From NCBI GenBank assembly GCA_014654705.1, contig JACVZY010000006.1:1-64000 (forward strand): a stretch of DNA of 64,000 nucleotides, given 5' to 3'. The stretch is from Ignavibacteria bacterium (GTDB taxonomy: Bacteria > Bacteroidota > Ignavibacteria > Kapaibacteriales > UBA4661). Made by a program: the position numbers and the translations under genes. Below the pieces are notes generated by a model. That model ran no database searches, had not been told where the DNA came from, and saw nothing but the letters and a program-made list of their open reading frames with translations. Below, piece after piece: positions 28,243-46,693 of this stretch (position 1 is the first letter of the stretch; each line of letters starts with the position of its first letter).

Positions 28243-28587
28243 ATGGCAACAATAACAACGACAAAAGCGGCAAATGTAATGGTTGTAACCGTAACCGAAA
28301 AGCGCCTCGACGCAAAAATAGCGGTCAGTTTCAAAGACGAAATGGCTTCACTTATCAATGCAGGCGAAACGACGGTCGTTCTTGACCTCAGCAATGTAGG
28401 CTTTGTCGATAGTAGCGGCTTAGGTGCTATTGTTACAAGCCTCAAGCTCATCGGTCGCAAGGGCGATTTACTTGTGGCGGGCGTGAAGGATGACGTAATG
28501 ACGATGTTCACTCTGACCCGCATGGATAGAGTCTTTCAAATGTTCCCGACCACAGATGATGCTTTGAATAGTCTCATTGCAAAATAA
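28243..28587 (+). CDS. STAS-domain anti-sigma factor antagonist-like protein
   Basis: A 114-residue single STAS domain of the SpoIIAA/RsbV type. Partner-switching proteins of this kind bind an anti-sigma kinase when unphosphorylated and let go when phosphorylated on a conserved serine. That site is present (VDSSGLGAIV, Ser57/Ser58). It is the first gene of a fourteen-gene plus-strand run; the kinase gene follows after 33 nt and a matching phosphatase lies at 42131-43333. Confidence 0.92.
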   Translation: MATITTTKAANVMVVTVTEKRLDAKIAVSFKDEMASLINAGETTVVLDLSNVGFVDSSGLGAIVTSLKLIGRKGDLLVAGVKDDVMTMFTLTRMDRVFQMFPTTDDALNSLIAK

Positions 28588-28620
28588 ATTTCCCACGCGC
28601 ACATCTGTCGGGGCAATTCT

Positions 28621-29052
28621 ATGGCATTACTTCATCTTTCGGGCGAAGCCACCTTCGATACAGTCCGCCTTGTTGGGATGGCAATTCGGGCTGTTTGTGC
28701 GTCTGTCTCCTCCAGCTCTGAGGCGGCACAAATTGAACTTGCTGTCGTGGAAGCCAGCAATAATATCGTCGAACACGCTTACAGAGCCGTGCAAGGCGAT
28801 ATTGCCCTTGATGTGGACATCGGAGAAAAGAAAATTGTCATAGCCCTGCACGACACCGGCGAGACAATGCCAACCGCATCACACCAAAGCGCAAATTTGG
28901 ATTTTGACCCGATGAATCTGGACGACCTTCCTGAAGGCGGCATGGGGCTTTTTCTGATGACCAGTATCATGGATGAGCAGTCGTACGTCTCGGTAAACGG
29001 CAAAAACACGCTCACGCTCACCAAATTCTTGCACGGAGAGAATAATGATTAG
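28621..29052 (+). CDS. RsbW/SpoIIAB-like serine kinase (anti-sigma type)
   Basis: A 143-residue GHKL ATPase domain of the HATPase_c_2 group. Signature boxes are intact: N-box EASNNIVEHAY (Glu44, Asn47), G1 box HDTGETM (Asp78) and G2 box EGGMGLFLM. It probably phosphorylates the STAS protein encoded just upstream. Whether it holds a sigma factor or another target cannot be told; no sigma factor gene lies in the operon. Its end overlaps the GH2 gene by 8 bp. Confidence 0.9.
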   Translation: MALLHLSGEATFDTVRLVGMAIRAVCASVSSSSEAAQIELAVVEASNNIVEHAYRAVQGDIALDVDIGEKKIVIALHDTGETMPTASHQSANLDFDPMNLDDLPEGGMGLFLMTSIMDEQSYVSVNGKNTLTLTKFLHGENND

Positions 29053-31291
29053 ACATCTTCTCTCTTGTTGTCTCGCGCTTTTATTTTTTACCGCTTGCTC
29101 GCTGCAGCGGGATTTTGCGCCGCAGAATAGTCTCGCACATCCGCACGGCATCAATCTTCCCGACCCCTCATCAATACCATACCTTGATTTGCACGGCGAG
29201 TGGTCTGTGCGGCGCGATGACGGGCGGGCGCAGGATTCTTTACCTCCCGCACCGCGCGTTATCGGCGTTCCGGCAAACTGGTACACCGAAGGGCTTGATT
29301 ATGCAGGCGCAGTCTTGTACGAGCGACGCTTTTTTCTGCCCAAACTCAGCGCAGACACCTTGCTCCGCCTTGTTTTTGAGGGCGTTGATTACGAAGCGGA
29401 GGTCTGGCTGAATGGTAAACTACTCGGCAAACACACAGGCTATTTTCAGCCATTTTCGTTTGTAGTGAATGAATTCGTGCAATTTGGCGCTGAAAACGTC
29501 CTCCGCGTCCGCGTAAACAGCCCGAATGAACACCCCGACAATTGGTCGCTGCGCAAACGCTTGGTCAAAGGAATTTTTGGTCATCACGACACTCGTCCGG
29601 GCGGCGCATGGTCTGTGCGCGGGCAGGATGCCAATACGGGTGGAATATGGGGAAACGTCTATGTATCTGCCTCGCAGAGTATTGCGCTCGAAAGCGTAGA
29701 ATGTACGCCGCTTCTGGATAGCACATACACACAGTCGATCGTCTGCCTGCGCACTGCCATTCGTTCGCAATCTCGTAAGCGAGTAATGATGCACTTTGCA
29801 GCAAAAGATGCGAGTGGTGCAATAACAGAACATACCCCAAAAGAATGTTTACTGCAAGCGGGACTGAATGTGGTCTATGACACTCTGCGCGTTCACAAGC
29901 CGCGCCTCTGGTACACGCATGACGTAGGGCAGCCGCATTTGTACACGCTCTCCACGCAGGTTTATGATTCCGGGCATACGCAAACTACCAAGCAAGCACC
30001 CTTGAGCACCCGAACAGATAAATTCGGTATCCGCGAGATACGATACGACCAGAATACAGGCGAGTGGCGCTTGAACGACAAGCGATTATTTCTTCGCGGC
30101 ACGAATTACATTGGTACGCAATTTCTTTCCACTATGAATCGGACGGCATACAACCGCGATGCTGTACTAATGCTGCAAGCAAACATCAATGCCGTGCGCG
30201 TCCATGCTCACATAGCCCGCAAGGAATGGTACGATGCCTGTGATTCGCTCGGCTTGCTTCTTTGGCAAGATTTCCCCTTGCAATGGGGTTATGCCGATGA
30301 TGCAGAATTTGTGCAGACCGCATCCAATCAAGTCCGCGATATGATTCACTCGGCGTATAATCACCCAAGTATCGCCGCGTGGTGCCTGCACAACGAACCG
30401 CCATTTGATGCCGATTGGATGCAGTATAAATACCCTAACTACTCCCCGCAGCAGAATGCAGCGCTCAATACCATTCTTACACGAATAGCAAGCAGCCTTG
30501 ATGCGACGCGCTATGTGCATCCTTTTTCGGCAACTCGTGAACATCATTGGGAGGGCTGGTACTTTGGCTCGTGGACAGATTATAGCAAACCCGTCACCGA
30601 GCACCTCGTTACCGAATTTGGGGCGCAAGCTCTTCCGAGCCTCGCGACTCTGGAAACAATTCTTGGGGAAAAACCTACACTTCCGTCTAATGATGCCGCT
30701 TGGAAAAAATGGGACTATCACAATTTCCAACGCCACGAGACGTTTGATTTTGCTAAAGTAGCGATGGGCGCTAGTGTGGAAGAATTTGTGCGCAACTCGC
30801 AAGAGCATCAGCGCCGCGTTACCGAACTGGCGGCAGAATCGTATCGCTTGCAGCGCTATGCGCCTGTCGGTGCGATATTTCAGTTTATGTTTGTGGAAGC
30901 ATGGGCTTCGATGAACTGGGGAATTGTTGACTATATGCGCAACCCCAAGCCCGCTTACGATGCGCTCCGTGAGGCATACCGACCGACCTTGATTGCGAGC
31001 ACGCTGGATTCGGCGTCAGGCAATGTGAATGTTTTCGTTGTTAACGATAGATGGCAAGCCTTTCCAAAGGCACATTTGCATTATACATTAGAGATGAATG
31101 GTCGTCTAGTCGCTCAAACACACCTTCCGCTTCTTGTTCCGGCAGATGCGAAGGTTGCGGCGAGTTTCACACATTTACAGGAATACGGCAGATACCGTTT
31201 AGAAGCAACGCTCCTGAATGACAACGGCGACACCCTCAGTCGCCGCTCAAAAAGCATTGATTACCAACCAAGCCGTACAAAACCTCAATAA
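29045..31291 (+). CDS. Glycoside hydrolase family 2 lipoprotein
   Basis: A 748-residue GH2-type enzyme (beta-galactosidase, beta-mannosidase or beta-glucuronidase group) with a lipoprotein signal (FFTAC, Cys18). Domain order: jelly-roll sugar-binding domain (about 45-215), immunoglobulin-like domain (215-320) and TIM barrel (320-650). The acid/base Glu is in CLHNEPPFD (about residue 450) and the likely nucleophile Glu in LVTEFGAQALPS (about 523). It probably trims a beta-linked sugar from the exopolysaccharide or a related glycan at the cell surface. Confidence 0.88.
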   Translation: MIRHLLSCCLALLFFTACSLQRDFAPQNSLAHPHGINLPDPSSIPYLDLHGEWSVRRDDGRAQDSLPPAPRVIGVPANWYTEGLDYAGAVLYERRFFLPKLSADTLLRLVFEGVDYEAEVWLNGKLLGKHTGYFQPFSFVVNEFVQFGAENVLRVRVNSPNEHPDNWSLRKRLVKGIFGHHDTRPGGAWSVRGQDANTGGIWGNVYVSASQSIALESVECTPLLDSTYTQSIVCLRTAIRSQSRKRVMMHFAAKDASGAITEHTPKECLLQAGLNVVYDTLRVHKPRLWYTHDVGQPHLYTLSTQVYDSGHTQTTKQAPLSTRTDKFGIREIRYDQNTGEWRLNDKRLFLRGTNYIGTQFLSTMNRTAYNRDAVLMLQANINAVRVHAHIARKEWYDACDSLGLLLWQDFPLQWGYADDAEFVQTASNQVRDMIHSAYNHPSIAAWCLHNEPPFDADWMQYKYPNYSPQQNAALNTILTRIASSLDATRYVHPFSATREHHWEGWYFGSWTDYSKPVTEHLVTEFGAQALPSLATLETILGEKPTLPSNDAAWKKWDYHNFQRHETFDFAKVAMGASVEEFVRNSQEHQRRVTELAAESYRLQRYAPVGAIFQFMFVEAWASMNWGIVDYMRNPKPAYDALREAYRPTLIASTLDSASGNVNVFVVNDRWQAFPKAHLHYTLEMNGRLVAQTHLPLLVPADAKVAASFTHLQEYGRYRLEATLLNDNGDTLSRRSKSIDYQPSRTKPQ

Positions 31292-31303
31292 TCATCGCAG
31301 AGC

Positions 31304-33394
31304 ATGGCAAATTTTTTAGAAACGCGAGCCTTCACCGATACCTTGCTGGACAATTTTGCCTCGGCGGTGCTGGCGATTGACAAGGAAGGTACCATTCTGT
31401 TTTGCAATCGCTCGGCAGAGGAATTGCTTGGCTACACGGCAGATGAGCTGGTGACGAAACAAAACATTAGTATTCTGCAAGACAAAGAAACAGTAGAGAA
31501 CCTCCGTGATGAGCTTTCCCAAGCATTTGGCATCAAGAATCTTACAGATGTAGGATTACTTTTTGCCGCCGCAGAGCGCTCGCACAGGCAGCGCCGTATC
31601 TGGAAATATCGTGCAAAAAATGGTCGCGTTATCAGTGTTGAAATGGCACTCAGCGTTCTTGAGCACCACCAAAGTGCAACACAAGATTTGTTCATTACAG
31701 CACGGAACATTGAAGAGCAACAAGGGCTGGCAGAACTGAAGGTAGAACTCCTTTCGCGCCTGAGTCACGAGATGCGAACCCCCTTGCATGGCATTATCGG
31801 CGCACTGGAACTTCTTGCTTCTACACCTCTGGCACCCGAGCAGAAAGAAATTCTAGCACTCGCCCGCTCAAAATCGGACATTCTTGTTTCGCTCATCAAC
31901 GATATTTTCGAGTACTCACGCTCTCAGGGACGTTCTCTCAGTTTGGAGCGAGTGCCGGCAGAACCCCGCGCTATTATGCGTAATATCGTGGAAGTGTTGA
32001 GTGAACGGATTTCATCGCGGGATATTGCTATTATTTCGGCAATTGACGAAGCAGTGCCGAACCAGATTCTCTGCGACCCAGTGCGTCTGTATCAGGTTCT
32101 TATGACGGTAGTATCCATTCTGGCAAGTTTTATGAATGACGGCACGATCCACCTAGCACTGGAATTTTTACCAAGTGCAAGTGAAGAATTTGGTGGGCTG
32201 TACTTTACTATACGAGGCGCTGCGACGACTATCAACGTTCAAAAGCGCGGGCAGATTCTGGCTCTTATCCAGCACGAAGAAGAATCGCCGGACGTGAGCG
32301 CCGAAAGCCTGCAATTATCCCTCGCCCGCAGTGTGATTATGGCAATGGGTGGATTTTTTTGGAGTGAGAAAAAAGAATATGTTAATGACAATGAAACCAT
32401 CATGCACATTGTCGTTTCGGTAGAAAGCGCAGACGAAACAAATTCCGGAAACCTACCGACAGACGCTGCACACACCCACGATAGTGAACGAACAGTTGAT
32501 AATACCATCGTCGCAAACCGTTCGACCAGTAGCGCTGAGAAGGAAGCACTAACCAGAAAATCTGACTTCGGCAATACATCGCAGGCACATTCACAACCGG
32601 GCACTACTGGTATTGGCAGGCGTATTCTCATTGTGGACGACGACCCCGATAACTGCCAGTTAGCAGCATTATTTCTCCGTGGGCTGAACGACAAACAGGG
32701 CAATGCACCGCTGATTACCATCGCCAATAACGGTCTGGAAGCCTTAGGAGAAGCGCAGAAAATCAGGTTTGATGTTATTCTCATGGATGTCCAAATGCCA
32801 CTCATGGATGGCTTTGAAGCGACAGAGTGTATTCGAGCTTTCGAGGCGAATAACCACTTCAAACGCACACCAATACTGGCTGTAACGGCGCATACGATGG
32901 AAAACTACCGCGAACTCTGCTTGCAGAAAGGCATGGATGATTATATGTCGAAACCAGTCAAAAAACAACAGTTGCAGGAATTTGTTCAAAAATGGCTTGA
33001 CCGCAAGCCCATTATTATCGTTGCCGACGACAGCGACGATTATCGCTTATTACTCAAATTGCAATTTGACAAACAGAAGCAATACTCAATTATTTTTGCA
33101 ACGAATGGACAAGAAGTCCTTAATTTGTGTCAGAACCACGACGTGGATGCAATCCTGCTTGATATGCAAATGCCCATCATGACTGGCTACGAAGCAGCTC
33201 CAATCCTACGACAAATGCCTAAATACAGTACCATCCCCATTTGGGGTCTGACGGCACATGAAGGCTTGCCAGAGATTGAAAAGGTTCTTGCCGTCGGTTG
33301 CGACCGCTGCTTTACGAAAGGAAATTTGTCGGTAATTCGCCAAATCATTGCCGGATTCGACGAGTATTTTTTACTATCGCAAACTATACAGTAA
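31304..33394 (+). CDS. Hybrid sensor with PAS, HisKA, degenerate ATPase and two receivers
   Basis: A 696-residue soluble protein: PAS domain (about 14-137), HisKA helix with intact phospho-acceptor His155 (SRLSHEMRTPLHG), an ATPase-like region (258-375), and two receiver domains with phospho-acceptor Asp495 (ILMDVQMPLMDG) and Asp620 (ILLDMQMPIMTG). The ATPase region keeps its place but has lost the N-box Asn (RLYQVLMTVVSILASF), the G1 Asp-x-Gly and the G2 glycines, so it probably cannot bind ATP. REC1 has the usual SKP lysine (Lys550); REC2 has TKG (Lys672). Likely a phosphorelay scaffold or phosphatase serving the Hpt protein. Confidence 0.88.
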   Translation: MANFLETRAFTDTLLDNFASAVLAIDKEGTILFCNRSAEELLGYTADELVTKQNISILQDKETVENLRDELSQAFGIKNLTDVGLLFAAAERSHRQRRIWKYRAKNGRVISVEMALSVLEHHQSATQDLFITARNIEEQQGLAELKVELLSRLSHEMRTPLHGIIGALELLASTPLAPEQKEILALARSKSDILVSLINDIFEYSRSQGRSLSLERVPAEPRAIMRNIVEVLSERISSRDIAIISAIDEAVPNQILCDPVRLYQVLMTVVSILASFMNDGTIHLALEFLPSASEEFGGLYFTIRGAATTINVQKRGQILALIQHEEESPDVSAESLQLSLARSVIMAMGGFFWSEKKEYVNDNETIMHIVVSVESADETNSGNLPTDAAHTHDSERTVDNTIVANRSTSSAEKEALTRKSDFGNTSQAHSQPGTTGIGRRILIVDDDPDNCQLAALFLRGLNDKQGNAPLITIANNGLEALGEAQKIRFDVILMDVQMPLMDGFEATECIRAFEANNHFKRTPILAVTAHTMENYRELCLQKGMDDYMSKPVKKQQLQEFVQKWLDRKPIIIVADDSDDYRLLLKLQFDKQKQYSIIFATNGQEVLNLCQNHDVDAILLDMQMPIMTGYEAAPILRQMPKYSTIPIWGLTAHEGLPEIEKVLAVGCDRCFTKGNLSVIRQIIAGFDEYFLLSQTIQ

Positions 33395-33434
33395 GAGACT
33401 TCATTGTAAGAAAGAGAAACCCAAGGTAAGAGAT

Positions 33435-33746
33435 ATGAAAAAAAATATCGTTCATATTTCGTCAGATTTAGAGCCACTTATTCCGCGTTATCTTGACAAC
33501 CGTCGGGCGGATATTGTTATGCTTCGTGAAGCGCTGCATTTGAGTAATAGCGACGTGATTCGCTCCATTGGTCATACGATGAAGGGTTCCGGCGCATCCT
33601 ACGGGCTAGAGGAAATAAGCACCTTTGGTCGTATGCTTGAGGTAGCCACTCAAGCCTCGGATATATCGGAGGTGGAAGTGATTATCAATCAACTTGCACA
33701 TTTTTTGGAAACACTTGATATTATCTTTGTGGATGATATGCCGTAA
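33435..33746 (+). CDS. Stand-alone Hpt phosphotransfer protein
   Basis: A 103-residue histidine phosphotransfer protein. The phosphorylated histidine is His47 in IGHTMKGSGASYG, in a predicted four-helix bundle. The ATG at 33435 is used, with an AAGG site 8 nt upstream; the frame extends back to 33348 but overlaps the sensor gene. It sits between the hybrid sensor and the synthase genes and probably moves phosphate between receivers. Confidence 0.85.
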   Translation: MKKNIVHISSDLEPLIPRYLDNRRADIVMLREALHLSNSDVIRSIGHTMKGSGASYGLEEISTFGRMLEVATQASDISEVEVIINQLAHFLETLDIIFVDDMP

Positions 33747-33762
33747 AAAGCTGTAACGCATT

Positions 33763-35571
33763 ATGTCTGAATACTACTTTCACCAGTTTGAAAACCGCCA
33801 CCCTCCAGCACCGATTCCGTACTCACCCGCACGGGAAGCACTGTGGCAATTCTTAGCAACAATAGCTTTGGCGCTGGGCGCGTGGTATATTACGTGGCGC
33901 TGGACCTCCAGTATCAATGTTCAAGCGCTGTGGTTTGCGATACCGCTCCTTTTTGCCGAGACTTGTGCATATTTCGGATTGATTCTTTTCGCCATCAATC
34001 TGTGGAAAACAGAAGACACGCCCAAAAAAGATCCGCCCCGCTTTATCCGCGAGTGTGTTCGTGAAGAAGATGCTCTGCACGGCATAGAGCGCCCTCTGGC
34101 AGTAGATGTCTTTTTCCCGACGTACAACGAAGATGTTGAACTTGTCCGCATGGGAATACGCGACGCAAAGGCGATGCGCTATCCACACCCGATAGATATT
34201 GCCATTCACGTTCTGGACGATGGCAAGCGCGATGAAATGCGCCGTGTGGCAGAAGAAGAAGGCGTGAATTACATCACCCGTAGCAACAATATGGGCTTCA
34301 AAGCTGGGAACCTGCGCAATGCAATGGAGCAGACCTTTGGTGATTTTATTGTCATTTGTGATGCCGACACGCGCCCTTTCCCGACCATGCTGGCACACAC
34401 ACTTGGTTACTTCCGCGACCCGGATGTGGCATGGGTGCAGACCCCGCAGTGGTTTTTTGATTTGACCGCCGGAGAGCGTCTAAAAAACTGGATGCTTCGC
34501 CGCTTTTCCTACGCCGGATATGTGGTCGGAGCTGCTGTGGAAGGAATCATTGGCACAGTGGAAGTAGGGCATGACCGCTTTGTGAACGACCCACAAATGT
34601 TTTTTGAAATCATTCAGCGCCGCCGAAACTGGGCAAATGCTTCATTTTGCTGCGGTGCAGGTTCTATTCACCGCCGCGAAGCCGTGATGCAAGCTGCCAT
34701 GCAGACCTACGCCGATGCTATTGATGGCGAGGTACGCCGCTTCACCGAAGAAATTCATGACGAAGACATCAAACGCGACCTTTCGGACGCAATGCGCAAG
34801 GAACTGGCGCTTGAAACCGAAGTCGTACCGTATAAGTTCCATGTTTCGGAGGATATTTACACTTCCATCGTACTCCATTCATATGAAGCACGCGAGTGGA
34901 AATCAGTTTTCCACCCGGAAGTGGAATCGAAAATGCTTTCGCCCCAAGACCTGCTCAGTTGGACGATTCAGCGCTTTAAGTATGCAGGCGGCTCACTAGA
35001 TATTTTCTTCCACGACAATCCAATTTTTCGCAAAAGCCGTATGACCTTTGCGCAGCGCACGATGTATTTCGCAACGTTCTATTCCTATCTGGCTGGCGTG
35101 TGGAATGTTATTTTTCTCTTTGCGCCTATTGTCTATCTTTTCACAGGTGTATCGCCTGTGAGTGCAGATACCGCCGAGTTTGCAAAACGTTTTTTGCCGT
35201 TTATTGTTATGAGCGAACTTGCATTTTTGGTCGGTACGTGGGGTGTTCCGGGGTGGCAGGGAATGGCGAGCTATTTGTCATTTTTCCCTATCAATCTGAG
35301 AGCGCTCTGGACGGTGCTTCGCGGCGAAAAAATCCGCTTTCACGTTACCCCCAAAGACCGTCAGGAAGGTAATTTCTTGCACTTGGTCATCCCGCAGCTT
35401 ACGGTTATCGTTCTGACTATTCTGGGTTTACTTTATGCCGGAATAATGATTTGGCTCGGCAAGACAACCAACTACGCGGGCTTTATCATCAATCTTTTTT
35501 GGGGAATTATCAACGTTAGCGCGATGGGCGGTTTGGTGGCAGCAGCCTTGTGGAAGCCGAAAGAGACCTAA
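33763..35571 (+). CDS. Cellulose synthase-like processive GT2
   Basis: A 602-residue inner-membrane glycosyltransferase resembling BcsA. Two N-terminal helices precede a GT-A domain with LDDGK (151-155), DAD (200-202), FCCGAGS (295-301) and a TED-type triad SED (362-364); about five C-terminal helices follow. The usual QxxRW product-binding motif reads QRFKY (403-407), keeping Gln and an aromatic. There is an insertion around 320-355, and no C-terminal PilZ domain, so direct c-di-GMP control as in BcsA is unlikely. It probably polymerises a beta-linked glucan from UDP-sugar; the linkage is not provable here. Confidence 0.9.
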   Translation: MSEYYFHQFENRHPPAPIPYSPAREALWQFLATIALALGAWYITWRWTSSINVQALWFAIPLLFAETCAYFGLILFAINLWKTEDTPKKDPPRFIRECVREEDALHGIERPLAVDVFFPTYNEDVELVRMGIRDAKAMRYPHPIDIAIHVLDDGKRDEMRRVAEEEGVNYITRSNNMGFKAGNLRNAMEQTFGDFIVICDADTRPFPTMLAHTLGYFRDPDVAWVQTPQWFFDLTAGERLKNWMLRRFSYAGYVVGAAVEGIIGTVEVGHDRFVNDPQMFFEIIQRRRNWANASFCCGAGSIHRREAVMQAAMQTYADAIDGEVRRFTEEIHDEDIKRDLSDAMRKELALETEVVPYKFHVSEDIYTSIVLHSYEAREWKSVFHPEVESKMLSPQDLLSWTIQRFKYAGGSLDIFFHDNPIFRKSRMTFAQRTMYFATFYSYLAGVWNVIFLFAPIVYLFTGVSPVSADTAEFAKRFLPFIVMSELAFLVGTWGVPGWQGMASYLSFFPINLRALWTVLRGEKIRFHVTPKDRQEGNFLHLVIPQLTVIVLTILGLLYAGIMIWLGKTTNYAGFIINLFWGIINVSAMGGLVAAALWKPKET

Positions 35572-35643
35572 GTAAACAGCAACAACCTTCATTTGTCAAG
35601 GGATTCCTACCCTTCATCCAACACACTCAAACCATCAAGCACA

Positions 35644-36996: not shown

Positions 36997-37137
36997 AGCC
37001 CAGATTGCACATACCTTCCAGAACGTATTGCAGAGGTACTATTAAACCCCTGAAGCAATTTTGCAGTCTTGCTCACATCAGTTAAAAACTGTATCTTGCG
37101 GCATTGTCACGACACCACACAATCACCTCATCATGCT

Positions 37138-38584: not shown

Positions 38585-40018
38585 ATGAAACCTGCATTCA
38601 ACCTTACAACCTTGCCTTTTTTTGCCTTGCCTTTCTTGAGCTTGCCTCTGTTGCGCAGCTTAGGCATGGCGATTGTAGCGGTGTTTGCTCTTGTATGCGT
38701 GTCGTGTGGAGTAGCGGTGCGGGCTGTGGACGAAGGAGCTGAAAAAGTTGGCGCTGCTTTTCAAGAAGGACGGCGCGGGCGCTTAACGGAAGACGAAATT
38801 GTCTGGGCTAAAACAGCGTGGAAGTACTTTGAAAACAACTATAATCCGCAGTCCGGCTTGGTAAATATCAAAGATGCATACCAACTGGTAACAATGGAAA
38901 GCACTGCGGACTACATCGTAGCACTGATGGCGGCACGCGAACTGGAAGTTATCAGCAAGCACGAGTTCGATAGCCGATTAAGTCTTGTCTTTGGGTTCTT
39001 GAATACAATGCCACTTGCTTTCGATGAACTGCCCAACGTGAATTACAATGCAGTTTCGTTGCGACCGACAGATTATGCTAATAATTACGGCACAATAGGC
39101 TGGGCAGTGAATCATGTAGGAAGATTGATGAATGTTCTCCGGCTCTTGCGCAACCGTTACCCGCAATATGGTGAATACGCCGATCGTGTTGTGCTTCGCT
39201 GGGCTTTTTGTAATATTGTAGATGCACAAGGAAATTTATACAGCGCCGTAAACGTCAACGGGAAGCCCGAAAAGTACCTTGATGCCAAACACGGGTGGAA
39301 AGAATACACGGCACGCGGCTTCAAAACATGGGGGTTCCCCACCGATGCTTCCACCAGTATCGAACCTGCGGAAACTATTCGTATTTACGACGTTGAACTC
39401 TACTTCGATGGCAAAGACGAGCGCGAAAGCGGTGGAAATAATGCGGTGAACAGTATGCCGTATTTCCTCATGGCACTGGAGTACGGGTGGGAAAATATTC
39501 CGTATCTCGCCATCGACAAGCGCTATTACGACCAAATGCAAGCCGTCTATGAAGTCCAAAAACGCCGCCATGAGCGCGAGGACATATTCACCGCCCGCGC
39601 GACGCATGAAGTCAATACTGAACCATATACGGTGTATGACGCTATTTTTTCCAACGGCTATAAATGGACAACGATTTCTAGCCAAGGGGTGTATTACCCA
39701 TTCCTCTCTGCCGTTTCTACCAAAGCTGCTTTTGCAATGTGGGCAGTTTTCAAATCAGATTATACCGACCAACTTATGCTCATCGTCAACCACCTTTTCG
39801 ATCCGGCGCGCGGCTGGTACGAAGGCAGGCTTGAAAAGACAGGCGATGCCGTCCGTACCTTGACCTGCGCAACCAATAGCGCCGTTCTGGAAGCATTGCT
39901 CTTCAAAAAAACAGGGCGATTATACACAAGAGCAAAAGAAGAAAACGACCTCTACAACATCTATCTACGCGACGAATTTAAGGTTATCAGCCGTTGCTTT
40001 CCCGTTAAACCGAAGTGA
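38585..40018 (+). CDS. DUF3131 protein C (possible lipoprotein)
   Basis: A 477-residue DUF3131 paralogue. The N-terminus has a long hydrophobic stretch ending in a lipobox-like CVSCG (Cys41), so it may be a lipoprotein, although the residue at -3 (Cys) is unusual. The domain keeps WKYFENNYNPQSGLVNIKDA and YTVYDAIFSNGYKWTT but diverges elsewhere: the TMWD motif of A and B is TMESTADY here. It follows protein B by 46 nt. Confidence 0.84.
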   Translation: MKPAFNLTTLPFFALPFLSLPLLRSLGMAIVAVFALVCVSCGVAVRAVDEGAEKVGAAFQEGRRGRLTEDEIVWAKTAWKYFENNYNPQSGLVNIKDAYQLVTMESTADYIVALMAARELEVISKHEFDSRLSLVFGFLNTMPLAFDELPNVNYNAVSLRPTDYANNYGTIGWAVNHVGRLMNVLRLLRNRYPQYGEYADRVVLRWAFCNIVDAQGNLYSAVNVNGKPEKYLDAKHGWKEYTARGFKTWGFPTDASTSIEPAETIRIYDVELYFDGKDERESGGNNAVNSMPYFLMALEYGWENIPYLAIDKRYYDQMQAVYEVQKRRHEREDIFTARATHEVNTEPYTVYDAIFSNGYKWTTISSQGVYYPFLSAVSTKAAFAMWAVFKSDYTDQLMLIVNHLFDPARGWYEGRLEKTGDAVRTLTCATNSAVLEALLFKKTGRLYTRAKEENDLYNIYLRDEFKVISRCFPVKPK

Positions 40019-40032
40019 TTTTTTGCTGCACC

Positions 40033-41016
40033 ATGACACACACGACTTTCCACCACATCCGAGACGCGTTTGTCTGTTCTCGACCGTACCGCCTCTGCGC
40101 CCATGAAAGTGTGCAGCGAACTAACTATGGGTTGATTGGTAGAATCCTCTTTTTCCTTATTTCTGCTCTTGCAGCGCAGCAAATAGCTCTTGCTCAATAT
40201 AAAACCGGTGCAAGCACTCCTGCACAGCCCAAAGTACAAGCAGTACAAGACGTACAAACCCGCTCGGCAGCCAGCATCAATGCAGACAGTATCTATAATG
40301 CCGCCCAAACAATCACTTTTTCCGGCATCCGATGGAAAATTCGTAGCACAAATACTCAATCAGAGCCGGGTAACAATTTCTTTTCGAGCGCTCGGAGCGA
40401 AGTCTGGACAGACAGTGACAAAAAATTGCATCTGCAAATCAATACCCGTGATAGATATTGGTTCTGCGTTGAACTTGTTGCCGATACAGTGCTGGGTTAC
40501 GGTACATATGCAGTTTTTCCTGAAATTAAGCTGGATACTTTACCGCAAAATATCATGCTTGAATTTGGCTTGACACCCGACAAGGCACTACACAAATACA
40601 TTCCCGATGACGTTGCGATACAGTTCACCCGTATGGGAACACTGAACTCTGCAAACACGCTTCAGTACGTGGTTTCGCGCCCTCAAAATGCAAAAGAGCA
40701 ATATACTCCCGAGCGAAAAGAACGGATATTTCGCCCCGAAGCACCATTCCGTATGCAAGGCTCATACTCCACCCACGCTTTTACGTGGCGCGAAAACGCA
40801 CTTGAATTTGCCAGCTATCACGACCACGGGCTGCCCACGCCCTATTTAGCGGCGCTGTGGGAATTTTCGGGATCAACGGTGCTTGATTTGCAAGTGCCGA
40901 AAGCAGCTGAGCCGTACCGAATGCGCTTACGTCTTTGGTCGGCAGGCTCGCCTATCGGCGGAAAGCCATTTGAGGTCATCATCAAAAAAATTCAATTTGT
41001 TCCGCTCAAAAAGTGA
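40033..41016 (+). CDS. GH16-fold secreted protein, probably non-catalytic
   Basis: A 327-residue exported protein with the pattern of the GH16/concanavalin-like fold found beside many polysaccharide genes: FSGIRWKIRST, EPGNNFFSSARSEVWTD, and the downstream QYVVSRPQ. At the position where active relatives have a Glu-x-Asp-x-Glu catalytic strand, this protein reads PDDVAIQF (about residues 191-198), so the catalytic acids are lost. It may bind glucan rather than cut it. The long N-terminus before the hydrophobic signal segment (about 34-54) is odd; the ATG at 40033 is the only good start. Confidence 0.72.
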   Translation: MTHTTFHHIRDAFVCSRPYRLCAHESVQRTNYGLIGRILFFLISALAAQQIALAQYKTGASTPAQPKVQAVQDVQTRSAASINADSIYNAAQTITFSGIRWKIRSTNTQSEPGNNFFSSARSEVWTDSDKKLHLQINTRDRYWFCVELVADTVLGYGTYAVFPEIKLDTLPQNIMLEFGLTPDKALHKYIPDDVAIQFTRMGTLNSANTLQYVVSRPQNAKEQYTPERKERIFRPEAPFRMQGSYSTHAFTWRENALEFASYHDHGLPTPYLAALWEFSGSTVLDLQVPKAAEPYRMRLRLWSAGSPIGGKPFEVIIKKIQFVPLKK

Positions 41017-42098
41017 AATACTCTTGTAAGCATAGCGCATCGGGCAAGATTCCTGCTCGTGTAAGAATCTACTTCAACGGCAGATTCTATCTGGCGATGG
41101 CGCTCAGTATTGCGGCTTCTCTTACGTGTGTTTATGCACAATCGGACAAAGAAAGTACGATTCGCGCTATCAATAAATACGGCTTTCTCCAGCTCAACGG
41201 TCAAGGCGCAAAAGCCGTAAAATCTATTCCGGCAGAAAAAACACCGAGCGAAGATGAGTCGTGGGAGAATATCTGGACAAATATGCAAACGTCGTTCAGC
41301 TTGCCATGGGAAGATTTTTTCAAAAAAGAAAAACCTACGGATGGCTTGAGCGGTAGTCTCTCGGTAACGTATCCGCTCAGTGACATTGCCTCGCGTCAGG
41401 GAAGTGGTTCATCGTCGCAGGGTGTACCGCTCTCCAGCGCAGTTGTTGGCGCATCGTTGTCCTACGTGCCTATTGGGTATTGGTTTGTCAATCTGTCGGT
41501 GATGCGGTACTGGTATCCTGAGCGCAAACAGTCGTGGAATCCTGATTTCACATATAGTTTTGGCTATAATGACTGGCACCCGTACACCTTTAGCTTCACC
41601 TATCAAAACTATGGCGGAAACCGCTTTGCGCCACAAGCCGGAGAAGTGGTGTCGCGCTTTTGGGAAGGTACATTTTCGCTCGGCTGGAAGTTTCCCTCGG
41701 CAAAGCTGATTGAGTATCTGTGCGTGGTTCATCCGAGCGGGGGCATCGGACATAGCCTAAGCGCAAACATCACCCCGCAATACCGCGATGCAGCTTCAGG
41801 TGAGACTCGGTTTTGGAAAACAGATTTTACTCTTTCAACCAAATATACGATTTATGAAAATTTTTACTTTAATTTCAACATAAACCTCTACCCGATTGCG
41901 GGGCAGCAACAGCCCTGGGATCCCGATTTCACCTACGGATTCGGGTATTTCGACTGGCATCCGTATTCGTTTTCTGTTCAGTACAACAACTTTGCCGGCG
42001 GGCGCTTCCCATGGAACCCGACCACACTCCAAAGCAAAGGATTTTTTGACGCTTTTCTTGACGGAACAATCTCCGTTTCGTGGAGTTTTGTTTTCTAA
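41013..42098 (+). CDS. Outer-membrane beta-barrel, exopolysaccharide operon
   Basis: A 361-residue secreted protein. It starts with a GTG at 41013 that overlaps the preceding stop (GTGA), giving a signal peptide with a charged n-region and cleavage near CVYA-Q; the next ATG (41097) would give a very short signal without positive charge. The mature part has alternating strands with repeats of FTYSFGYNDWHPYTFSFTYQ and FTYGFGYFDWHPYSFSVQYN, and it ends in Phe (SVSWSFVF), typical of outer-membrane barrels. In this operon it could be the export pore in place of BcsC, or a polymer-binding barrel. Confidence 0.72.
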   Translation: MKYSCKHSASGKIPARVRIYFNGRFYLAMALSIAASLTCVYAQSDKESTIRAINKYGFLQLNGQGAKAVKSIPAEKTPSEDESWENIWTNMQTSFSLPWEDFFKKEKPTDGLSGSLSVTYPLSDIASRQGSGSSSQGVPLSSAVVGASLSYVPIGYWFVNLSVMRYWYPERKQSWNPDFTYSFGYNDWHPYTFSFTYQNYGGNRFAPQAGEVVSRFWEGTFSLGWKFPSAKLIEYLCVVHPSGGIGHSLSANITPQYRDAASGETRFWKTDFTLSTKYTIYENFYFNFNINLYPIAGQQQPWDPDFTYGFGYFDWHPYSFSVQYNNFAGGRFPWNPTTLQSKGFFDAFLDGTISVSWSFVF

Positions 42099-42130
42099 CC
42101 GTTCATTTGAACGCCTCTTTTGCCTCAACC

Positions 42131-43333
42131 ATGAAAATTCTTATTGCCGATGATAGCGAAGACATGCAAATGCTTCTGTCGCAGTACTTGCGCCAGTGGG
42201 GGCATACGGTTGTCGTTGCTCGCAATGGTGCCGAGGCGCTCCATATCCTTGAAGAAACCGATATTCAGTTTGTTATCAGCGATTGGGCAATGCCCCTTAT
42301 AAGCGGCGAGGAGCTTTGCCGCACCGTCCGCGAGAAAATAGACCTTCAGCGCTACATTTACATTATTCTCCTGACTGCAAAGCAAGAACGACAAGACCTT
42401 GTAACCGGCATGGAAGCCGGTGCCGATGATTTTATCCGCAAGCCTTTTAATAAAGATGAGCTGCGCGTGAGGATTCGTGCGGGCGAGCGAACACTCCAAA
42501 TGGAAAAAATGCTTGCCGAGCAAAATACACAACTCAAAGAAGCTCAGGCGGCTCTGAGGAACGACCTCGAAATAGCGGCACAAGTGCAGCGGAATCTTCT
42601 TCCGAACCCTAACGAACAGCCATTTGTACACGCCGGATATCGTTTTGATTGGCTCTATACGCCCGCAGCGTTTCTGGGCGGCGATACGTGTAATGTTTTG
42701 CGACTGGACAAAACGCACGCAGGCTTTTATATGATTGACGTTGCCGGACACGGCATTCCGTCGGCGCTCAAGACCGTCATGCTTCACCAGACGCTTTCCG
42801 CTGCTAATGGGCAAGCGGGACTGCTGAAAGACGATATTTCCTACGCGCCGCACTGCTTCATTCGCCCGTCGGCGGAGGTTCTGTACGATTTGAATAACAT
42901 CTCGCAAGATGAAAATGATGCAATGCACTACTTCACGATGATTTATGGTCTCTTGGATGTAGAAACGGGGCAAGCAACCATCAGCCATGCAGGGCATCCC
43001 TCTGCCATCCTGCTTCATAGCGACTCTTCTCTGGAAATGACCGAAACAGGCGGCGTTCCCATCGGGATGCTACCCGAAATGGTGTACGAAGAAAGTACAT
43101 GGACGCTGATTGTGGGAGACCGCATTATTCTTTACACTGACGGCATTACCGAGTGTGAAAATGTTCTTGGAGAACAGTTCACGATGGAGCGCTTCCAAGA
43201 CCTTTTGCGCCAGCATTGCCAAAAGCCGCTCCGCGACATGATTGCTGCTATTCATCAGTCACTCGTTGCGTGGCGCGGTAACTCTGGTTTTGACGATGAT
43301 GTATCGCTTCTTGTCATTGAACGATTTGCATAA
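42131..43333 (+). CDS. Response regulator with PP2C (RsbU/SpoIIE) phosphatase
   Basis: A 400-residue protein: receiver domain (1-120; phospho-acceptor Asp51 in VISDWAMP, Lys104 in RKPF), coiled-coil linker (about 128-160), and PP2C-type serine phosphatase (about 160-400) with metal sites in FLGGDTCN, IDVAGHGIPSAL, LYTDGITE and GFDDDVSLLVI. In partner-switching systems such enzymes dephosphorylate the STAS protein; here the partner would be the protein at 28243-28587. The receiver could be fed by the Hpt protein. The ATG at 42131 is preferred to 42080. Confidence 0.92.
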   Translation: MKILIADDSEDMQMLLSQYLRQWGHTVVVARNGAEALHILEETDIQFVISDWAMPLISGEELCRTVREKIDLQRYIYIILLTAKQERQDLVTGMEAGADDFIRKPFNKDELRVRIRAGERTLQMEKMLAEQNTQLKEAQAALRNDLEIAAQVQRNLLPNPNEQPFVHAGYRFDWLYTPAAFLGGDTCNVLRLDKTHAGFYMIDVAGHGIPSALKTVMLHQTLSAANGQAGLLKDDISYAPHCFIRPSAEVLYDLNNISQDENDAMHYFTMIYGLLDVETGQATISHAGHPSAILLHSDSSLEMTETGGVPIGMLPEMVYEESTWTLIVGDRIILYTDGITECENVLGEQFTMERFQDLLRQHCQKPLRDMIAAIHQSLVAWRGNSGFDDDVSLLVIERFA

Positions 43334-43355
43334 CCCCCAACACCGCACAACGTCT

Positions 43356-44861
43356 ATGCTCTCATCACAAAACCGCTCCCCGCTTGAACGGATTCAAACA
43401 CCCGCATTTTGGGGAATTGTTACGTTTGTCCTCTTCGCGCTTGCATATCTGCGGCTTGCGCTCAATTTTAATGCACCATATCTGGATGAATGTGATTATA
43501 TCTTCGTGGGACGCGCCTTGCTTTCAGGTGAGCCGTGGATAACGAAAACCTATATCTTCAGCTCCGATATGCACCTGTACCTCTACGGGCTGGCAGACCG
43601 CATTTTTTCAGGTGAGCACAGCTATCTTGCGGCTCGTGCCTTTGCCGTGATTATGGGTGCAGCATCGCTGTGGTTTTTCTATTCTTTTGTGAGGAATCTT
43701 TACGCCGCGCACACCGACTCGCGCCGCATTGCTGAACTTGCCGCGCTTCTTCTGGCGCTGACCGTACCGCACGTGTTCATCAGCCAGTTTGCCACCTACG
43801 ATGTCGTGTGCTTCATGTTTTTTGCTGCATCGCTCTGGCTGCTATCGGCTTCGGTACTGAATCCTCGCGAGACTTCTTCTCAAAAGCAAGCACTCATCAT
43901 GTGTGCAGGAGCAGTACTCTACGCATTGGCAGTGCTGGCAAAGTATGTGGTGATTGCATATGTACCGCTTCTTTTCGTGGCATTACTCCTCAAAAATCGC
44001 CGCGCCGCGCTTATTTTTATGCTTGTTGTGACGACGATGCTCGGTGGGTATGTGTTCTTTTACCGCGTTGAACTCCTACAGCTTTACCACAATCAAATTC
44101 TCGGTACGCACAAAGCAAATGCGACCCTGTGGAATATTCTCTCGACAGCGCTTGAATACTGTGGTTTCACAGCACTACTTGCGGTGGCGTTATTTTTTTT
44201 CAAAAAGGAAAAAGTACTTTCGGCTTGGTATTATGGCACTTTGGTACTCTTTGCCACTCCGCTTGTGGCATACCACGTGCGCTCGCAGGATGTGATTTCG
44301 CTCTACAAACACGTTGTGTACGCCTGTTGCTTCCTTGCGCCGATTGCCGGAGAAGCGCTTTATCTCTTGCTTCGCAGGGCAGCAGACCGCGATAATGATT
44401 GGCTGCGGGCGCTTGCGGCGGCACTAGTGGTGGTGGCTTGTGGGCTGCTCTGGTGGCAATTACGCAAGGTGCAGACCGCGTATCCGAACACGGATGCCGT
44501 TACGCAACTTGTGCGCAGCAACATGAGTGCTCAGACAACCATTTTAAGCGAGGATGCGTACTTGTTCCGTTATGCTTGCTTCCCAACTATCCCTACGAAA
44601 AACCTCGAAGAAATGACGTGGTACGACAATAACCACGACGGCAAACGCGAAGCGCAAGACGTGATAGATGCTGTATGGGATGGAAAGTTTGAATACGTCT
44701 ATCTGAACGGCTTAATTCTGCGTGAACTTGGCGATGAACTCAAGCGAGGCGTGCTGAAGAATCGCTATGAGTGCATTCTCACCATTCCTTTCCATAATTC
44801 AACCGTAATGAACCCAATCAACACGGGTTTTCTTAGCCTTTATCGCCGTCGTACCAAATGA
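43356..44861 (+). CDS. GT39-type membrane glycosyltransferase
   Basis: A 501-residue polytopic protein of the PMT/ArnT type. The first periplasmic loop carries an acidic motif (APYLDECDYIFVGRALL) and MHLYLYGLADRIFSGEHSYLAARAFAVIMGA, matching the donor- and metal-binding helix region. About ten membrane spans follow, then a soluble C-terminus. The ATG at 43356 lies 22 nt after the phosphatase stop. It may decorate a lipid-linked precursor or the polymer with a sugar. Confidence 0.75.
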   Translation: MLSSQNRSPLERIQTPAFWGIVTFVLFALAYLRLALNFNAPYLDECDYIFVGRALLSGEPWITKTYIFSSDMHLYLYGLADRIFSGEHSYLAARAFAVIMGAASLWFFYSFVRNLYAAHTDSRRIAELAALLLALTVPHVFISQFATYDVVCFMFFAASLWLLSASVLNPRETSSQKQALIMCAGAVLYALAVLAKYVVIAYVPLLFVALLLKNRRAALIFMLVVTTMLGGYVFFYRVELLQLYHNQILGTHKANATLWNILSTALEYCGFTALLAVALFFFKKEKVLSAWYYGTLVLFATPLVAYHVRSQDVISLYKHVVYACCFLAPIAGEALYLLLRRAADRDNDWLRALAAALVVVACGLLWWQLRKVQTAYPNTDAVTQLVRSNMSAQTTILSEDAYLFRYACFPTIPTKNLEEMTWYDNNHDGKREAQDVIDAVWDGKFEYVYLNGLILRELGDELKRGVLKNRYECILTIPFHNSTVMNPINTGFLSLYRRRTK

Positions 44862-46693
44862 CCCTGACCATGCGCCACTTACTGCTATTGTGTGGGCTGT
44901 GGTCAGCACTGAACCTTGCCTGCACGAACCGAGAAACCCTGTTATACAGCCAGACCAGCGCCGACTGCCGTATAGTTGTGAATCAACTGGGATTTTATCC
45001 AAACGCACAGAAGATTGCTCTGGTGCAAGGCGTTGTGCGGCGCGAGGATACATTGCGCTTTGGAATTGTGGCAGAAATATTTGACACCGCACGAAAAGCA
45101 GTAGTGCTGCGCGTCGCAATGGGACTTCCAACGGTGGATGCGCAAAGTGGCGACACGCTCAGGGCGCTTGATTTTTCGATTTTGAATAAAGAAGGTGTGT
45201 ACCGAGTGCGCTATGGCGGCGTGGAATCTGCACCATTTCGTGTTGGAAGAAATGTCTATGACAGCCTTGTTACGCTGATGCTGCGCAGCTACTACCTTCA
45301 GCGCTGCGGAGTGGCAGTGCGCGATAGCGTGAATGGTATTTACCACGAGGCGTGTCATTTGGCTGACGGTATTCTCGCTCGCAAAGACGAACTTCATGCA
45401 CAAGGAACGTCCATAAAAGCACACGGTGGCTGGCACGACGCGGGCGATTATGGAAAATATATCACCACTACATCAGTGAGCGTTGCAAGCCTCCTAACCA
45501 CGTTTGAAGAGTTCGGCACTGCCCTACCACGCTTATTCGGTGATAATTTGCGTATTCCCGAAAGTAAAAATGCGAAACCTGATGTGCTTGACGAAATAAA
45601 AGTGGCGCTTGACTGGATGCTCCGGATGCAGCGCAGCGACGGCGCGGTGTACAGAAAATTATCCGGCGCGGCGTGGTCGCCGCTCATTCCCCCCGACGCA
45701 GAGCAGCAGACGCGCTACGTCTATGGTGTCTGCACGCCCGAAACGGCGAAATTTGCCGGAGCAATGGCGCAAGCGGCGCGTGTACTGAAGCCGTTCTGGG
45801 GACAGTACGCCGATACGTGCTTGCGGGCAGCAAAAGCAGCATGGCAGTATTTGGAGAAGCACCCACAAATGGCGGTGGACTGGCAAGCAAGTGATGACGG
45901 GGGTTCGGGTAAGTATTTGGAATCGGAAGTTGACACCGAACAATCACTTTTTGTGGACACAGACGATAGATTTTATGCGGCTTCAGAACTTTTTATGACC
46001 ACGCGCGACAGTTTATACTTACGCACGAGCAGCGCCCTTTTCAATAATATAGCAACAACGCCTGACTATGGAATTGTTGAATGGAAAAACGCTGCTCCGC
46101 TTGCAATGACGAATCTTATCCGCTTGGCAAAGCCTGATTTTAGCAAAGAAATTCAACGCCGCATCAGTATTCATGCCGCTCACGTGGAAAAACTTATTGA
46201 AGCGAGTGCTTACCGCTATGGGAATAAGCGCATCGTCTGGGGATCGAACAAGATGATTGCGGAAGAAGCTGTCACGCTCCTTCATGCGTACCGTCTCAGC
46301 AAACACCGCGCTTTTCTGGACGGCGCACAAGACCAATTGGATTTTCTTTTGGGACGGAATCCTTTCGGTTTGTGCTTTGTAAGCGGCGCGGGAACCCACT
46401 CCGTAGAACACATCTGCCACACATTTGCCCGTGCAAAGGGCTTGACAGGGCGGCGAATGATTCCGGGCTTGCTTTCGGGGGGAGCAAACGAATTGGAGCA
46501 ATCGGGAATCGCACCCAAAAATCGAGGTTTGAAGAGCTACGCAGATGACGAGCGCTCCTACGCAACCAACGAAAATGCTATTGACTATAATGCCTCAGCC
46601 ATTGCACTCGTGGTCATGCTGGCAGCAGAACTGGAGCGAGAGGCTTTGCCCGCCGCGAACCTGACAAAACCCAAGACACAAATCGGGAAGTAG
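44858..46693 (+). CDS. Glycoside hydrolase family 9 endoglucanase
   Basis: A 611-residue exported endo-beta-1,4-glucanase (cellulase). After a signal peptide (possible lipid Cys22), an immunoglobulin-like CelD_N domain (about 35-125; VVNQLGFYPN) precedes the GH9 alpha/alpha-barrel. The catalytic base Asp is in GGWHDAGDYGKY and the acid Glu in YATNENAIDYNAS. Its start overlaps the GT39 stop (ATGA). A GH9 enzyme beside a cellulose-like synthase could trim the nascent chain, the role played by the GH8 enzyme BcsZ in bcs operons. Last gene of the run. Confidence 0.92.
   Translation: MTLTMRHLLLLCGLWSALNLACTNRETLLYSQTSADCRIVVNQLGFYPNAQKIALVQGVVRREDTLRFGIVAEIFDTARKAVVLRVAMGLPTVDAQSGDTLRALDFSILNKEGVYRVRYGGVESAPFRVGRNVYDSLVTLMLRSYYLQRCGVAVRDSVNGIYHEACHLADGILARKDELHAQGTSIKAHGGWHDAGDYGKYITTTSVSVASLLTTFEEFGTALPRLFGDNLRIPESKNAKPDVLDEIKVALDWMLRMQRSDGAVYRKLSGAAWSPLIPPDAEQQTRYVYGVCTPETAKFAGAMAQAARVLKPFWGQYADTCLRAAKAAWQYLEKHPQMAVDWQASDDGGSGKYLESEVDTEQSLFVDTDDRFYAASELFMTTRDSLYLRTSSALFNNIATTPDYGIVEWKNAAPLAMTNLIRLAKPDFSKEIQRRISIHAAHVEKLIEASAYRYGNKRIVWGSNKMIAEEAVTLLHAYRLSKHRAFLDGAQDQLDFLLGRNPFGLCFVSGAGTHSVEHICHTFARAKGLTGRRMIPGLLSGGANELEQSGIAPKNRGLKSYADDERSYATNENAIDYNASAIALVVMLAAELEREALPAANLTKPKTQIGK

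What the first reader, a model, noticed from the sequence alone, without database searches (positions are those of the whole stretch)
28243..46693. Fourteen-gene operon linking partner switching to a cellulose-like exopolysaccharide machine
All genes are on one strand with mostly short gaps or overlaps (8 bp and two of 4 bp). Regulatory genes (STAS protein, RsbW-like kinase, hybrid pseudo-kinase, Hpt protein, receiver-PP2C phosphatase) are interleaved with a BcsA-like synthase, three DUF3131 proteins, a GH16-fold protein, an outer-membrane barrel, a GT39-type enzyme, and GH2 and GH9 hydrolases. The standard bcsB, bcsC, bcsD and bcsZ genes are absent and the synthase lacks PilZ. The simplest reading is a synthase-dependent polysaccharide secretion system whose activity is set by phosphorylation of a STAS protein rather than by c-di-GMP. 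I do not know a described system with this gene set.
Basis: partly seen in the sequence, partly recalled or inferred. Interest (0 to 1): 0.88.

Follow-up and report, generated by a model that had tools for sequence, protein, structure and literature searches.

The report
Partner-switch-controlled exopolysaccharide gene cassette
A block of genes that makes and exports a cellulose-like sugar polymer travels, in many unrelated bacteria, together with a protein-phosphorylation switch that probably turns it on and off in place of the usual small signalling molecule; I found no experimental test of how it works.

Summary
The block is real: 14 same-strand genes at 28243-46693; two family labels (GH16 fold, barrel) lack support. 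The operon probably starts at 24202. The set is a cassette shared across phyla: a genome scan gave 413 synthase relatives. Of the best 80 loci, 56 have over 9 kb on both sides; 53 of these 56 carry STAS, RsbW-like kinase and PP2C phosphatase beside the synthase, against 0 of 16 canonical BcsA loci. Key switch residues are kept in all members compared. All 86 synthases read QR[F/Y]KY where cellulose synthases have QxxRW. DUF3131 folds like beta-1,2-glucan enzymes; DUF4301, upstream, like UDP-sugar pyrophosphorylases. The genome shows no PilZ, no BcsB and one GGDEF domain without its signature. Best reading: a synthase-dependent exopolysaccharide gated by partner switching, not c-di-GMP. Polymer, direct target and sign of the switch are inferred. 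A Klebsiella paper lists a matching gene set in passing; I found no functional study.

The parts
24202..25011 (+). GT2, dolichyl/polyprenyl-phosphate hexose transferase-like; probable first gene of the extended operon
   Evidence: NCBIfam NF041391 best, 80.5 bits against cut-off 375; homologues also beside DUF4301 in L039 and L043
25076..26677 (+). DUF4301; predicted UDP-sugar pyrophosphorylase fold (nucleotide-sugar supply, inferred)
   Evidence: Pfam PF14134; AlphaFold model pLDDT 81.0; VIA Z 21.0, rmsd 4.0 over 332 residues to a UDP-glucose pyrophosphorylase
26771..28012 (+). cytochrome c protein between DUF4301 and STAS in the window; not seen at that place in L039 or L041
   Evidence: Pfam; ORF positions
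28243..28587 (+). STAS protein (anti-anti-sigma type), candidate phospho-acceptor Ser58 in DSSGLG
   Evidence: PF01740, TIGR00377 57.9 bits, over its cut-off; DS[S/T] in 77 of 77
28621..29052 (+). RsbW-like serine kinase
   Evidence: PF13581; N-box Glu and Asn in 77 of 77
29045..31291 (+). GH2 hydrolase, nearest solved relatives beta-mannosidases
   Evidence: Pfam; PDB search
31304..33394 (+). PAS-HisKA-REC-REC hybrid protein with degenerate ATPase region
   Evidence: Pfam, no HATPase_c at E <= 0.001; compared
33435..33746 (+). Hpt phosphotransfer protein (first ATG; ORF opens at 33348)
   Evidence: PF01627; sequence
33763..35571 (+). BcsA-like GT2 synthase without PilZ; QRFKY for QxxRW, SED for TED
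   Evidence: Pfam, TIGR03030 217.7 bits against cut-off 699.1, motif counts
35593..36996 (+). DUF3131 copy a, N-terminal membrane anchor by eye; (alpha/alpha)6 barrel of the beta-1,2-glucanase clan by fold
   Evidence: PF11329; model pLDDT 90.9; Z 35.5 to 8wy1
37069..38538 (+). DUF3131 copy b, signal peptide by eye
   Evidence: PF11329; tree
38585..40018 (+). DUF3131 copy c, possible lipoprotein by eye
   Evidence: PF11329; tree
40015..41016 (+). probably secreted protein of unknown family (GH16-like only by eye)
   Evidence: no Pfam hit; hhalign against GH16 probability 2.7; homologue in 4 of 80 loci, all Kapaibacteria or Ignavibacteria records
41013..42098 (+). putative outer-membrane barrel with repeated DWHP motif
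   Evidence: no Pfam hit over a cut-off; homologue in 45 of 80 loci; alignment A11
42080..43333 (+). receiver-PP2C (SpoIIE-type) phosphatase; ATG option at 42131
   Evidence: PF00072 and PF07228; metal-site Asp in 74 of 74
43242..44861 (+). GT39-type (PMT_2) membrane glycosyltransferase; start uncertain
   Evidence: PF13231
44858..46693 (+). GH9 hydrolase, nearest solved relatives endoglucanases
   Evidence: PF00759; PDB search

Best explanation
A synthase-dependent exopolysaccharide machine whose output is gated by an attached partner-switching module instead of c-di-GMP. Synthesis: a dedicated nucleotidyltransferase (DUF4301 here, a PF00483 enzyme in some other lineages) supplies the sugar nucleotide. 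The BcsA-like GT2 polymerises and translocates a glucan. The three DUF3131 (alpha/alpha)6-barrel proteins, the putative barrel and the GH2/GH9/GH16-type enzymes trim, transglycosylate or export it. GT2b with GT39 (here) or OpgC/acyltransferases (elsewhere) decorate it. Control: a sensory relay (hybrid protein, Hpt) sets the receiver of the PP2C phosphatase. The phosphatase and the RsbW-like kinase oppose each other on Ser58 of STAS. Unphosphorylated STAS licenses synthesis, by binding the synthase or the sugar-nucleotide enzyme or by holding the kinase off them. Shown: gene content, conservation, linkage, intact key residues, folds by prediction. Inferred: sign of the switch, its direct target, the polymer, and every biochemical step.
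For: PP2C, STAS and RsbW all lie within about 10 kb of the synthase in 53 of 56 full-flank loci, against 0 of 16 canonical BcsA loci from 14 genomes that also carry the synthase. Over the 80 loci, median distances to the synthase are 3.6 kb (STAS, 71 loci), 2.9 kb (RsbW, 71) and 3.4 kb (PP2C, 68). STAS DS[S/T] in 77 of 77, kinase N-box Glu and Asn in 77 of 77 (G1 Asp 76 of 77), PP2C metal Asp in 74 of 74. Protein distances of the three regulators track those of the synthase, r 0.82-0.86 (shared host history not removed). No PilZ in the synthase or found in the genome, no BcsB found, and one GGDEF domain whose signature position reads HGTTL by eye. DUF3131 and DUF4301 folds. A nucleotidyltransferase of one of two families in 28 of 80 loci; no locus has both. 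Glycogen phosphorylase group in 6 and an acyltransferase group in 29 of 80 (group names rest on one representative each). Precedent: partner switching is tied to biofilm, polysaccharide or aggregation in Syp, Hmp and Sia.
Against: No experiment on any member was found. Three full-flank loci (L043, L103, L114) lack the trio, so the machine can exist without it nearby. In the window the hybrid kinase looks inactive, so the relay's phosphate source is unknown. Synthase and regulators can be on opposite strands (L034, L037), so co-transcription is not universal, and in Pantoea stewartii L034 an IS66 element sits between the ATP-binding protein and the phosphatase. An EAL gene lies near the cassette in L035, so c-di-GMP may matter in some hosts. 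The control profiles were trained on cassette members and all 16 control loci are gammaproteobacterial, two of them from the genomes of L103 and L114. The genome is a 118-contig assembly (99.19% complete), so absences are not final.
Confidence: 0.7

Rival explanations
1. The partner switch works on transcription: STAS or the kinase controls a sigma factor encoded elsewhere, which expresses the polysaccharide genes; the synthase itself is not gated.
For: RsbW and SpoIIAB relatives are anti-sigma factors and the kinase scores to those models. The STAS review passage says that SypA output includes transcription of biofilm genes through an unknown target.
Against: No sigma factor gene was noticed in the annotated regions read; the loci were not searched with a sigma profile. 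The kinase scores far below the RsbW equivalog cut-offs (74 bits against 145).
Confidence: 0.17
2. About the product, not the switch: ordinary cellulose. The synthase makes beta-1,4-glucan and the system is a Bcs variant with replaced accessory genes.
For: Best family model is CelA; GH9 endoglucanase-type protein here and in 21 of 80 loci; gating-loop residues F (86 of 86) and T (85 of 86) of FxVT kept, V in 64 of 86.
Against: CelA 217.7 bits against cut-off 699.1; QR[F/Y]KY for QxxRW in 86 of 86; no BcsB found; DUF3131 and OpgC point to beta-1,2-glucan biology (the OpgC link is recalled).
Confidence: 0.35
3. The regulators are passengers: an unrelated stress module that happens to lie next to the synthase.
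For: Order and strand vary between lineages.
Against: 53 of 56 against 0 of 16, in loci from several phyla.
Confidence: 0.03

Closest known systems
Bacterial cellulose synthase (Bcs) systems
   Same: GT2 synthase with DDG, DxD and a FxVT-type loop; endoglucanase-type gene nearby
   Different: No PilZ, no BcsB, QR[F/Y]KY for QxxRW, SED for TED, three DUF3131, partner-switch genes
Syp of Vibrio fischeri (SypA STAS, SypE)
   Same: STAS protein in a polysaccharide locus, phosphorylated by the serine kinase/phosphatase SypE (abstract; passages)
   Different: Kinase, and receiver with PP2C, are separate genes here; the machine is synthase-dependent (Syp as another export type is recalled)
SiaABCD of Pseudomonas aeruginosa
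   Same: PP2C phosphatase and kinase balance the phosphorylation of SiaC, which controls aggregation and biofilm (abstract)
   Different: SiaC acts with a diguanylate cyclase, SiaD (listing); none seen here in the block
HmpUVW of Nostoc punctiforme
   Same: Partner switch in a motility and polysaccharide locus (passage)
   Different: Hormogonium context; no such synthase cassette in the passage read
Klebsiella pneumoniae accessory block 3b
   Same: [quoted passage not shown] apparently the same cassette, sequences not compared
   Different: Listed from a genome-wide association; no mechanism or test in the passage read

Membership tests
Bcs cellulose synthase | BcsA catalytic subunit over TIGR03030 cut-off | tested here: not met
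   217.7 bits against 699.1
Bcs cellulose synthase | PilZ domain in BcsA (c-di-GMP control) | tested here: not met
   no PilZ in the window synthase; none found in the genome, controls ring in 5 of 14
Bcs cellulose synthase | BcsB partner | tested here: not met
   no PF03170 found in the genome; controls ring in 2 of 14
Bcs cellulose synthase | QxxRW acceptor motif | tested here: not met
   QR[F/Y]KY in 86 of 86
Partner-switching module | STAS protein with phosphorylatable Ser/Thr | tested here: met
   77 of 77
Partner-switching module | HATPase_c_2 kinase with intact N-box | tested here: met
   77 of 77; PF13581
Partner-switching module | SpoIIE-type PP2C with metal-site Asp | tested here: met
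   74 of 74; PF07228
Partner-switching module | Demonstrated phosphorylation and partner exchange | not testable with these tools
   needs biochemistry
Syp | Kinase and phosphatase in one SypE protein | tested here: not met
   separate genes 28621-29052 and 42080-43333; the dual SypE is as told
SGL clan (GH-S, beta-1,2-glucan enzymes), for DUF3131 | (alpha/alpha)6 barrel closest to clan members | tested here: met
   Z 35.5 (rmsd 2.7, 345 aligned) to 8wy1; the first 15 rows (Z 24.1 or more) are beta-1,2-glucanases, cyclic beta-1,2-glucan synthases or putative glucoamylases; other barrels 21.7 and lower; hhalign probability 93.2 to GH144-like proteins over 110 columns
SGL clan (GH-S, beta-1,2-glucan enzymes), for DUF3131 | Clan-defining Glu, Phe and Tyr and catalytic acids | tested here: inconclusive
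   profile alignment does not reach those residues; E323 is invariant in 215 of 215 letters but not mapped
UDP-sugar pyrophosphorylase, for DUF4301 | UGP/UAP fold | tested here: met
   Z 21.0 (rmsd 4.0, 332 aligned); 48 of 50 rows are UGP, UAP or USP, then GlmU at 13.8
UDP-sugar pyrophosphorylase, for DUF4301 | Sequence match to PF01704 | tested here: not met
   only PF14134 at E <= 0.001

The most novel reading that the evidence does not exclude
A widespread, horizontally moving class of synthase-dependent polysaccharide system in which serine phosphorylation of a STAS protein directly gates the synthase or its dedicated sugar-nucleotide enzyme (post-translational control in place of c-di-GMP and PilZ), with QR[F/Y]KY synthases making a glucan that holds bonds other than beta-1,4, the DUF3131 trio acting on beta-1,2 or related bonds as new members of clan GH-S.
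Probability: 0.3. Interest if true: 0.85.

Novelty: new variant of a known kind. Interest (0 to 1): 0.66.

Why it matters
The direct target of the STAS switch in the Syp polysaccharide system is told as unknown. Here the switch is packed with the machine in loci from several phyla, including cultured non-pathogens, so the question becomes testable with few genes. It also offers fold-based function predictions for two unknown domain families (DUF3131, DUF4301) and a signature for a large synthase group, some members of which are annotated as cellulose synthase.

Tried and rejected
GH16 fold for 40015-41016: Pfam up to E = 10 and hhalign gave nothing. Barrel as BcsS: hhalign probability 0.2. Catalytic-residue transfer from GH144-like and CGS-like proteins to DUF3131: global hhalign aligned nothing useful beyond the first part. 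DUF4301 by sequence against the PDB: nothing; placed by fold instead. UDPGP family (PF01704) in 21 genomes: no hits and the controls did not ring, so uninformative. E. coli genomes: no near match to the Salmonella plasmid copy. Literature: searches gave no functional study of this gene set; the library holds open-licence papers only. Groups c14, c15, c16, c21 and c23 gave no or only weak Pfam matches; c35 and c37 were not scanned; some groups may be antisense ORFs in GC-rich loci (by eye).

Limits of the counts. Greedy gene calling loses genes in GC-rich loci, so the trio is counted by profile search; the cluster-based counts (GlgP, OpgC, H-NOX, globin, nucleotidyltransferase, DUF4301) are rough, named from one representative each, and 'globin' comes from record annotation, as Pfam gave nothing. 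The 80 loci are the best of 413 and hold near-duplicates (two Pseudooceanicola marinus, two Pacificibacter marinus), so counts are not independent. The 24 of 80 loci with a shorter flank were left out of the 56; 13 of those 24 had all three regulators. Control loci are cut by contig ends in four cases, and two of the 16 overlap.
Full report
What is there. The window is the first 64 kb of contig C6 of a 5.72-Mb, 118-contig genome. Its closest named relatives in the scan are Candidatus Kapaibacterium MAGs (the 90%-identical locus L038 has the same match coordinates as same-genus genome G435). The synthase gene is in 7 of 10 genomes of the family, 7 of the 8 that are near-complete. In the phylum sample, full-length DUF3131 was found in 4 of 395 genomes, the window's own included, all of one genus and each with three copies; the other 27 matching genomes have partial hits.

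The operon is longer. Upstream on the same strand lie a polyprenyl-phosphate-hexosyltransferase-like GT2 (24202-25011), DUF4301 (25076-26677) and a cytochrome c gene (26771-28012). In L039 the order is GT2b, DUF4301, STAS without the cytochrome. The 230-bp gap before STAS holds a genome-wide inverted repeat (58 match rows for its 86 bases in the own genome, both strands counted), so a promoter between cytochrome c and STAS is possible.

It is a conserved cassette. A tblastn search of plasmids finds the synthase in 17 listed records at 56-61% identity, among them Sphingobium, Paracoccus, Salmonella, Pantoea, Pseudooceanicola and Vibrio. Annotated regions show SpoIIE phosphatase, STAS and ATP-binding protein beside synthase and DUF3131 in Pseudooceanicola and Salmonella. 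In Pantoea stewartii the phosphatase and the ATP-binding protein are annotated, with an IS66 element between them, and STAS is seen only by profile. Sphingobium has the trio with BcsS and GH16 but no annotated DUF3131. The Vibrio record carries no annotation there. A scan of one genome for each of 84,980 species gave 443 pattern matches, 413 of them relatives, of which the best 80 were kept; these span Kapaibacteria, Desulfobacterota, Alpha-, Beta- and Gammaproteobacteria and a Sericytochromatia MAG, by record title. With domain profiles built from the window outwards, 53 of the 56 loci with more than 9 kb on both sides have PP2C, STAS and RsbW together; L043, L103 and L114 have none. In all 80 loci the trio is complete in 66, and DUF3131 is present in 77. 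As a control I searched 40 genomes of the carriers for canonical BcsA: 14 of 40 are over the TIGR03030 cut-off. I fetched 16 such loci from those 14 genomes (two overlap, some are cut by contig ends). The same profiles hit 0 of 16 for PP2C, STAS, RsbW and DUF3131, and 16 of 16 for the GT2. All these control genomes are gammaproteobacterial, two of them are the hosts of L103 and L114, and the profiles were trained on cassette members; these are limits of the control.

The parts look functional. Across 86 synthases (80 loci, five plasmids, the window), DDG, the two Asp of DxD and SED are invariant, and the position of QxxRW reads Q-R-[F82/Y4]-K-Y in all 86. The scan's search patterns did not include that motif. 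STAS keeps DS[S72/T5] in 77 of 77. The kinase keeps the N-box Glu and Asn in 77 of 77 and the G1 Asp in 76 of 77. The phosphatase keeps its metal-site Asp in 74 of 74. Pairwise distances of synthase against STAS, RsbW and PP2C correlate at 0.86, 0.82 and 0.83; shared ancestry of the hosts is not removed from that figure.

The relay is odd in this lineage. The window's hybrid protein has HisKA and two receivers but no HATPase_c hit. L039 and L040 also have none, L038 scores 22.1 against a cut-off of 26.4, while L041 (49.1) and L042 (38.7) pass; L043's and Yersinia ruckeri L116's hybrid kinases score 94.4 and 88.7, that of Pantoea L034 109.9. Sensors vary: an H-NOX group in 14 and a group annotated as globin in 5 of the 80 loci, CHASE in L116. 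This fits a fixed switch with exchangeable inputs (inference).

c-di-GMP. The window synthase has no PilZ. The genome shows no PilZ (the control rings in 5 of 14), no BcsB (2 of 14) and one GGDEF-domain hit of 63.7 bits. Its translation reads RYHGTTLAV where GGDEF is expected, by eye, so catalytic activity is unlikely. The assembly is a draft at 99.19% completeness.

New assignments by fold. DUF3131 copy a, modelled on 44 sequences, has pLDDT 90.9 and pTM 0.84. [quoted passage not shown] other (alpha/alpha)6 barrels follow from 21.7 downwards (Foldseek TM-scores of the top matches are 0.53-0.58 by query length at 11-13% identity). Sequence agrees in part: a PF10091 protein and a CGS-like protein also reach the DUF3131 cut-off over 84-100 residues, and hhalign gives 93.2 to GH144-like and 88.4 to CGS-like proteins. 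The paper on the recent clan families (passages read; DUF3131 found 0 times in its main text) does not treat it. Catalytic residues could not be mapped. Y175, R203, E323 and N447 are invariant wherever there is a letter in 217 copies. DUF4301 (pLDDT 81.0, 8 sequences) matches UDP-glucose and UDP-GlcNAc pyrophosphorylases (Z up to 21.0). In other lineages a PF00483 nucleotidyltransferase lies near STAS and RsbW: 22 loci against 8, none with both, window and a plasmid included. A glycogen-phosphorylase group (6 of 80) and an OpgC or other acyltransferase group (29 of 80) join in some. The picture is sugar-1-phosphate to NDP-sugar to glucan, with acyl or glycosyl decoration (inference).

How it probably works. 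The relay adjusts the receiver-PP2C; PP2C and the RsbW-like kinase set STAS phosphorylation; unphosphorylated STAS permits synthesis. The sign is borrowed from SypA, which is told as active when unphosphorylated and acting on an unknown target (passage). The nucleotidyltransferase gene lies between STAS and RsbW in several lineages, which makes precursor supply a candidate target next to the synthase; this is a guess from gene order. Transcriptional control through a distant sigma factor remains possible.

Prior knowledge. [quoted passage not shown] I did not compare its sequences. Of the other two papers with the word DUF3131, one has it in a Shewanella network table (passage) and the other I did not read. 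I found no functional description in the open-licence library; most subscription papers are not in it. The system is therefore filed as a new variant of a known kind: partner switching applied to a synthase-dependent polysaccharide machine that fails the tests for Bcs.

Noticed in passing
window 28080-28165: 86-bp inverted-repeat element between cytochrome c and STAS; 58 match rows in the own genome, both strands counted; REP- or MITE-like.
   Followed up: partly
L179 (own genome C3:67000-71500): The only GGDEF-domain protein found in the genome lacks the GGDEF signature by eye (HGTTL), so the organism may make no c-di-GMP.
   Followed up: partly
L008, L009 and other loci: A CGS-like and a PF10091 protein of Bacteroidota match Pfam DUF3131 over the cut-off in a stretch before the PF10091 part, a sign that PF11329 and PF10091 are related.
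   Followed up: partly
L043: Locus with synthase, DUF3131, GT2b and DUF4301 but none of the three partner-switch genes, and a hybrid kinase with HATPase_c: a natural comparison.
   Followed up: no
L035, L068, L104, L111: These loci have a BcsS-group protein and no DUF3131 found, and L035 has an annotated GH16, while the switch genes are there: accessory genes look replaceable.
   Followed up: no
L034: In Pantoea stewartii plasmid pDSJ10 an IS66 element lies inside the regulator block, between the ATP-binding protein and the SpoIIE phosphatase.
   Followed up: no
L049-L053, L055, L060, L071: Several carriers are sheathed or filamentous bacteria (Sphaerotilus, Thiothrix, Leucothrix; record titles); a link to sheath polysaccharide is conceivable (from general knowledge).
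   Followed up: no
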